Positions 2,482 through 4,933 of a stretch of 33,270 bases of DNA are shown one piece after another (the stretch's first letter is position 1; the number at the start of each line of letters is the position of its first letter). The position numbers and the translations under genes are program-made. Source of the DNA: Verrucomicrobiaceae bacterium (GTDB lineage Bacteria > Verrucomicrobiota > Verrucomicrobiia > Chthoniobacterales > Terrimicrobiaceae); the NCBI GenBank assembly GCA_007280915.1, contig QYQL01000082.1:1-33270 (forward strand), in the 5' to 3' direction. The notes below the pieces were generated by a model. The model saw only the letters and a list, made by a program, of their open reading frames with translations, did no database searches and was not told the DNA's origin.

Positions 2482-2588
2482 CCGCTGCAATACGCCGGGC
2501 AGCGTCAGGATTCAAATGGAAGAATCAACGCTCAGTGCGTGGAACTGCGGACAATCCATTTCATGTGGTTTCCGCACAAAGGACGGCA

Positions 2589-2729
2589 GGGTGCGATCAA
2601 AAGTGGGTGCGGTTGGGTTGCGCAGGGAGCACAGGCGGGACGCCTGTGGCTCTGGCTTCGCTGCGATGTTCTGTCTCCTCACAGGCGGGACGCCTGTGCT
2701 CCCTGGTTCACCCACTTTTGATCACACCC
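2589..2729. mobile_element. Miniature inverted-repeat element (MITE-like) with 9-bp target duplication
   Basis: The 141-bp segment is bounded by 20-bp terminal inverted repeats: GGGTGCGATCAAAAGTGGGT at 2589-2608, and its reverse complement with one mismatch at 2710-2729. It is flanked by a perfect 9-bp direct repeat, AGGACGGCA, at 2580-2588 and 2730-2738. This is the classic signature of a transposed non-autonomous element. Inside are two copies of a palindromic core, ACAGGCG-GGA-CGCCTGT, at 2631-2647 and 2681-2697. Their flanks place 13-bp arms (GGGAGCACAGGCG and its complement, 2625-2637 and 2691-2703) in inverted orientation. No transposase is encoded, so movement would need an enzyme in trans. 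I do not recognise the IS family. Confidence 0.85.
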
Positions 2730-2806
2730 AGGACGGCACACACGCCAAGACGGTGCTTGCAATCTGGCGCTGCTCCCCTACTCTGTCCCCAGGTGCCAAA
2801 ACCTTG

Positions 2807-2845
2807 AAACCCGCTTCCGGAAACGGAGGCGGGTTTTATTTTTGT
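2807..2845 (+). terminator. Strong rho-independent terminator on the plus strand, no obvious gene
   Basis: A 13-bp stem (AAACCCGCTTCCG 2807-2819 with CGGAGGCGGGTTT 2824-2836, one G·U pair) closes a GAAA tetraloop. It runs directly into TTTTATTTTTG on the plus strand. On the minus strand the hairpin is followed only by a weak, interrupted T tract, although it could still help end the BNR gene's transcript. No plus-strand gene is visible upstream. Confidence 0.8.
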
Positions 2846-4763: not shown

Positions 4764-4933
4764 ATACCATCTCTTGGAAATAACCGGGCTTTGCAGCGAC
4801 CAGGGAGAACGGGCGTCCCGCCTGTTTTGGCACTGACTCTGCATGCGCAGGCGAGCGTCTTTCACAGGCGGGACGCCTGTGCTCCCTGTTTTGCGCTGGC
4901 CCCTTATCGTCGCTATATTTCAAGAGACGGTAT
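4764..4933. repeat. Palindromic element E1: terminal inverted repeats around a double-hairpin core
   Basis: Outer arms are ATACCATCTCTTGGAAATA at 4764-4782 and TATTTCAAGAGACGGTAT at 4916-4933, which are reverse complements apart from one mismatch and a 1-nt indel. Inside, a 25-bp arm at 4801-4825 is inverted at 4864-4888 with two mismatches. The right inner arm contains the same ACAGGCG-GGA-CGCCTGT palindrome as the element at 2589-2729. The left outer arm is 17/19 identical to the left arm of the element at 5150. No target duplication was found. Confidence 0.75.

What the first reader, a model, noticed from the sequence alone, without database searches (positions are those of the whole stretch)
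2580..2738. A complete MITE-like element with perfect 9-bp target duplication
The 141-bp insert has 20-bp terminal inverted repeats (one mismatch) exactly abutting a duplicated AGGACGGCA on both sides. Removing the element and one copy restores a continuous sequence. It carries no gene but holds two REP-type palindromes, so it may be how that palindrome spreads.
Basis: seen in the sequence. Interest (0 to 1): 0.7.

Follow-up and report, generated by a model that had tools for sequence, protein, structure and literature searches.

The report
Promoter-seeking mini-transposon carrying captured palindromes
This is a real 141-base "passenger" jumping element in a bacterium of the Verrucomicrobiota; it uses the ends of a known transposon family (ISKra4), tends to land at one exact distance upstream of gene switches, and carries inside it a different kind of selfish palindrome that also spreads without it.

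Summary
Confirmed. Window 2589-2729 is a non-autonomous MITE with 21-bp inverted repeats (20/21) inside an exact 9-bp duplication, AGGACGGCA. The ends recur at element borders in its own genome, a sister species, other genera and another family of the order. Over 71 elements the flanking repeat peaks only at 9 bp: 31 have at most one mismatch, 0.5 expected. Partner insertion sequences of 1.4-1.5 kb with the same or nearly the same ends encode ISKra4-family transposases; one has an exact 9-bp duplication. None was found in the window's own (91% complete) genome. An empty site was found for a sister-species copy, not for the window copy. A sigma70-like -35 box begins exactly 27 nt outside one end far more often than at any other distance (25 of 124 flanks versus 2.6), including the window copy (TTGCAA 2757 / TACTCT 2779). 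Promoter-upstream targeting is known for ISKra4 elements, at a shorter spacing. The core is a REP doublet that occurs mostly without these ends (21 of 27 units here; one doublet at window 4799-4891) and flanks a Y1 transposase domain. So the MITE is a secondary carrier, not the main route of spread. Elsewhere the same ends hold different cores, some also found alone, suggesting repeated capture.

The parts
2580..2588 (.). target-site duplication, left copy AGGACGGCA
   Evidence: 9-bp flank repeats are the family rule
2589..2609 (+). left inverted repeat GGGTGCGATCAAAAGTGGGTG
   Evidence: same ends on ISKra4 ISs
2623..2648 (+). REP unit 1 of the doublet (CAGGGAGCACAGGCGGGACGCCTGTG, centre flipped relative to other copies)
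2680..2705 (-). REP unit 2 of the doublet (CACAGGCGGGACGCCTGTGCTCCCTG)
2709..2729 (-). right inverted repeat CACCCACTTTTGATCACACCC
2730..2738 (.). target-site duplication, right copy AGGACGGCA
2757..2784 (+). sigma70-like site TTGCAA-16-TACTCT, -35 starting 27 nt outside the right end, the distance preferred by the family; 7 of 12 consensus matches, weak on its own (not reported by the promoter scan)
4799..4891 (.). REP doublet of the same family without the transposon ends (comparison, not part of the element)

Best explanation
The element is a non-autonomous ISKra4-type transposable element (MITE): about 21-26 bp of each IS end around a foreign REP doublet. An ISKra4 (Mutator-like DDE) transposase supplied in trans, from an IS now absent or not assembled in this genome, recognises the GGGTGYGATNAAAAGTGG ends and inserts the element with a 9-bp duplication, preferring sites where a sigma70-like -35 box lies 27 nt from one end. 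The palindromic core is a REPIN-like doublet from a family that flanks a Y1 transposase domain and mostly occurs without the MITE; it was captured by the MITE. Shown here: ends, copies, duplication length, IS with these ends and its transposase family, preferred promoter distance, doublets without ends. Inferred: mobilisation in trans, how and in what order the core was captured, any effect on the promoter.
For: End-bounded copies with exact 9-bp repeats in the own genome; 9-bp peak, 31 of 71 against 0.49 expected; 1401-1480 bp ISs with these or nearly these ends and ISKra4 transposases, one with exact duplication AAATGCGGA; empty homologous sites for the G006:C62 copy; promoter peak at exactly 27 nt, consistent side within subfamilies; ISKra4 group known for 8-9 bp duplications and promoter-upstream insertion (PMC3942029); REP units mostly outside elements and next to a Y1 domain.
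Against: No ISKra4 transposase found in this genome or with these ends in its family. Transposase hits score 184-191 bits, just under the NCBIfam cut-off of 205. The promoter distance (27 nt) differs from the published 13-17 bp. The window promoter-like site is weak (7 of 12) and reads into a terminator within about 20 nt. No transposition was observed.
Confidence: 0.88

Rival explanations
1. The unit is essentially a REPIN/BIME moved by a Y1 (RAYT) transposase; the outer 21-bp repeats are just an extended palindrome and the 9-bp repeats are incidental.
For: The core is a REP doublet, the genome has Y1 transposase domains, and one is flanked by the same REP units.
Against: Y1 transposition is not expected to give target duplications (general knowledge of IS200/IS605), yet 9-bp repeats are the rule. 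The same ends bound elements with unrelated cores and ISKra4 ISs; most REP doublets have no such ends.
Confidence: 0.04
2. The promoter spacing is not targeting but survival: insertions are random and only those at a harmless distance upstream of promoters persist.
For: All data are from surviving insertions; the hairpin could be harmful elsewhere (inference).
Against: The peak is one base wide (25 at 27 nt, 7 at 28, 1-5 elsewhere nearby) and on a consistent side within subfamilies; published ISKra4, ISLre2 and TnGBS elements also insert at a fixed distance (PMC3942029).
Confidence: 0.06
3. The family has been kept by the host as a regulatory or terminator module, with mobility a thing of the past.
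For: Strong hairpin, placement next to promoters, no transposase in the genome.
Against: Several copies still have perfect duplications and nearly identical sequence (94% between C14, C45 and C1), so spread was recent; copies in relatives sit at different places and many are decayed.
Confidence: 0.1

Closest known systems
ISKra4 group (p-MULT4, Mutator-like DDE) insertion sequences, PMC3942029
   Same: GGG...CCC ends, inverted repeats in the 18-39 bp range, 9-bp duplication, insertion upstream of sigma70/sigmaA promoters; ISs with the same ends carry NF033572 transposases.
   Different: The element has no gene; -35 starts 27 nt from the end instead of 13-17 bp; the core is a foreign REP doublet.
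Bacterial MITEs in general (for example Nezha, MITEAba12, reviewed in PMC10969869)
   Same: Short, gene-less, terminal inverted repeats, target duplication, multiple copies, related full-length IS elsewhere.
   Different: The core is not an internal deletion of the IS but an independently mobile palindrome family; ISKra4 is not mentioned in that review.
REPINs / REP doublets with RAYT transposases (PMC3116915, PMC3733652)
   Same: Core of two imperfect palindromes, same family flanks a Y1 transposase domain and is scattered through the genome.
   Different: Here the doublet is enclosed by DDE-type ends with a duplication, which REPINs lack.
REP dimers inside longer palindromes in Anabaena variabilis and Halothiobacillus neapolitanus (PMC3733652, section 7)
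   Same: REP dimer inside a symmetrical outer sequence; the H. neapolitanus outer palindrome also starts GGG.
   Different: The section read gives no transposase, duplication or promoter rule for the outer palindromes, so whether they are the same kind of thing is open.

Membership tests
MITE | Short, no coding capacity, terminal inverted repeats | tested here: met
   141 bp, 21-bp repeats, no gene
MITE | Target duplication of constant length | tested here: met
   9 bp in the window copy and as the only peak over 71 elements
MITE | Several copies bounded by the same ends | tested here: met
MITE | Empty site in relatives | tested here: inconclusive
   met for the G006:C62 copy; window locus not alignable
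ISKra4-derived element | Ends shared with an IS encoding an ISKra4 transposase | tested here: met
   L179 identical outer 21 bp; G044, G053 and G065 similar
ISKra4-derived element | 8-9 bp duplications | tested here: met
ISKra4-derived element | Insertion at a fixed distance upstream of sigma70/sigmaA promoters (some members) | tested here: met
   peak at 27 nt, not the published 13-17 bp
ISKra4-derived element | Mobilised by an ISKra4 transposase | not testable with these tools
   needs a transposition assay
REPIN (RAYT-associated) | Core of two REP units of a family associated with a Y1 transposase gene | tested here: met
   (for the core only)
REPIN (RAYT-associated) | Whole element bounded by REP units and without target duplication | tested here: not met
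   The window element is bounded by ISKra4-type ends with a 9-bp duplication; only its core is REPIN-like

The most novel reading that the evidence does not exclude
ISKra4 minimal ends and REPINs are two mobile systems that repeatedly fuse: in several Verrucomicrobiota lineages REP-like hairpins of the host's own kind have been captured between the same transposon ends, giving composite elements that place a strong hairpin at a fixed 27-nt distance upstream of promoters, possibly acting as ready-made insulators.
Probability: 0.4. Interest if true: 0.65.

Novelty: new variant of a known kind. Interest (0 to 1): 0.5.

Why it matters
It ties an anonymous bacterial MITE to a transposase family with a rare property, insertion at a set distance from promoters, and shows that this rule can be read from passenger elements. 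It also documents one selfish element enclosed in another in more than one lineage, which makes it testable whether palindromic cores are favoured because they mobilise better or because they shield the promoter next door.

Tried and rejected
Plasmid collection and IMG/VR scan: no match. Rfam at a permissive threshold: only sub-threshold chance hits. Empty site for the window copy: the neighbouring gene is conserved but the intergenic region is not. The conserved segment 2777-2842 was tried as an anchor for an empty site, but in relatives its surroundings do not align. Considered and rejected: a general rule that cores are strong hairpins; only 14 of 25 cores fold with z below -3 and several subfamily-B cores do not. 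A REP-only control for the promoter test was too small to use (4 flanks); the control that counts is the other 65 distances.

Full report
What is there. The window element was read directly: AGGACGGCA 2580-2588, inverted repeat 2589-2609, REP doublet 2623-2705, inverted repeat 2709-2729, AGGACGGCA 2730-2738. The repeats are 21 bp with one mismatch. As single-stranded DNA the element folds far better than shuffles (z = -9.1).

Copies. In the same genome (G000, 3.56 Mb, 190 contigs, 90.8% complete) the end occurs 12 times with at most 3 mismatches and never in the reversed control. It bounds complete copies at C45:29707-29851 (duplication TGTCTCTCC), C99:4191-4333 (GTTCGCAAG) and C150:3528-3670 (ATTGGTATG), a copy at C1:6743-6888 without a duplication, a truncated copy (C133) and a decayed one (C81). 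C99 and C150 have the same ends but another core. The ends also occur in another family of the order (G053, G059, G060, G065) and in further Verrucomicrobiota MAGs. Over 71 non-redundant short elements the flanking repeat is enriched at 9 bp: 20 exact, 31 with at most one mismatch, 0.49 expected with partners shuffled.

Partner. L179 (QHPW01000023.1) holds two such ends 1401 bp apart around ISKra4 transposase frames. Homologues in G044 (1441 bp, exact duplication AAATGCGGA) and G053 (1480 bp) have similar ends and open frames of 393 and 432 aa; G065 has the gene next to the end on a broken contig. They match NF033572 at E 6e-54 to 5e-56, but with 184-191 bits against a cut-off of 205. In L179 the N-terminal part lies in another frame, broken at an A-rich run just before the KKTL motif where the G065 frame also begins; a programmed frameshift is possible but not shown. 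Other ISKra4 ISs of the family (G002, G005) have ends that share little beyond GGGTGC. No ISKra4 hit was found in G000 itself.

Empty site. For the G006 copy at C62:3865-4009, flanked by GATGCTTGA on both sides, the homologous place in G004, G000 and G005 has one ATGCTTGA and no element. In G004 both neighbours are contiguous, though with a longer spacer, so it is an empty site by homology and not base for base. The window copy could not be tested because only the neighbouring gene aligns.

Promoter targeting. Scanning 124 flanks for a -35/-10 pair at distances 0 to 65 gave one sharp peak: -35 starting exactly 27 nt outside an end, 18 nt past the duplication. At 7 of 12 matches or better there are 25 flanks at 27 nt, a mean of 2.6 and a maximum of 8 elsewhere; at 8 or better, 12 versus 0.6 (binomial p about 1e-17 if flanks were independent). 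The window copy is one of them (TTGCAA 2757-2762, TACTCT 2779-2784), but as a single site it is weak. Within subfamily B all 8 strong cases are on the same side of the core, and both strong cases of subfamily A are on one side. IS copies L253 and L257 show it, L254 and L179 do not at that threshold. Guerillot et al. 2014 (PMC3942029) report 8-9 bp duplications for this superfamily and promoter-upstream insertion for several ISKra4 members, at 13-17 bp. The behaviour is therefore known; the spacing here is different. Copies from one genome are not fully independent, but the strong cases come from several genomes.

The palindrome. The core doublet (subfamily A) belongs to a REP family: 27 matching units in G000, 6 in end-bounded elements and 21 outside; 63 in G006, 5 inside. 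A doublet without ends lies in this window at 4799-4891. Units of the family flank a Y1 transposase domain at G000:C64:15774-16007. Subfamily-B cores (GGTAGGGCGGGACGTCC...) also occur inside elements with other GGGTGCA-type ends (L304, and by eye L303 and L306) and without recognisable ends (L308, L309). In other genomes the cores are different; those of L137/L151 and L125 also occur without the ends in the same assembly. Three REP-A-type doublets in G000 and G006 sit at different distances from the ends, which suggests separate captures. Not every core is a strong hairpin (14 of 25 with z below -3).

Conclusion. This is an ISKra4-type MITE with a captured REPIN-like core. Movement in trans, order of capture and any effect on the neighbouring promoter are inferred, not shown. 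The closest precedent found for REP dimers inside larger palindromes is Di Nocera et al. 2013 (PMC3733652). I found no paper describing ISKra4 MITEs, within an open-access library only.

Noticed in passing
G000:C64:15715-16355 (loci L019/L028) and G006:C51 (L314): A Y1 (IS200-like) transposase domain flanked by two inverted REP units sits in frame inside the leucyl-tRNA synthetase gene, next to the editing domain, without a stop (Pfam LeuRS editing domain 1e-58, Y1_Tnp 1e-9 in one 1079-aa frame). The REP units are read through as protein. The same arrangement is in the sister species..
   Followed up: partly
G006:C31 (L316), G006:C37 (L317), G005:C330 (L315): Further in-frame REP-flanked Y1 transposase domains: within a C-methyltransferase-like gene (Pfam), within what reads like a DNA-modification methyltransferase gene, and as a tandem duplicate in an open frame. 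Resembles in-frame Rickettsia palindromic elements, but with a transposase..
   Followed up: partly
window 2777-2842: Segment CAGGTGCCAAAACCTTGAAACCCGCTTCCGGAAACGGAGGCGGGTTTTATTTTT, with a terminator hairpin at 2805-2838, is 86-88% conserved in G006:C27 and G002:C2 in surroundings that do not align; possibly a small RNA or mobile terminator..
   Followed up: partly
G006:C86:1913 and 9130, G006:C1:21082 (L303, L304, L306): The subfamily-B core appears between other ends (GGGTGCAKAACGSGAAAGTT and the like), in L304 close to the ends of the ISKra4 IS of G002 (GGGTGCAGGACAAAAATCT, L267)..
   Followed up: partly
G000:C99:4191-4333 and G006:C36:64003-64147 (L005, L092): Both species have a subfamily-B element upstream of the same helix-turn-helix-like gene, at slightly different positions and with different 9-bp repeats: independent hits on one promoter region or a much-changed shared insertion..
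   Followed up: partly
window 2630-2648 versus G000:C45:29743: The centre of the left palindrome is flipped in the window copy (GGGAC instead of GTCCC), an apparent micro-inversion between the palindrome arms..
   Followed up: no
G059:C20:45140-45240 (L124): A 101-bp relative with the same outer 18 bp whose core (TTGGGCGTCTCGCCCATGA) makes almost the whole element one hairpin; perfect duplication GGCGCGAAT..
   Followed up: no
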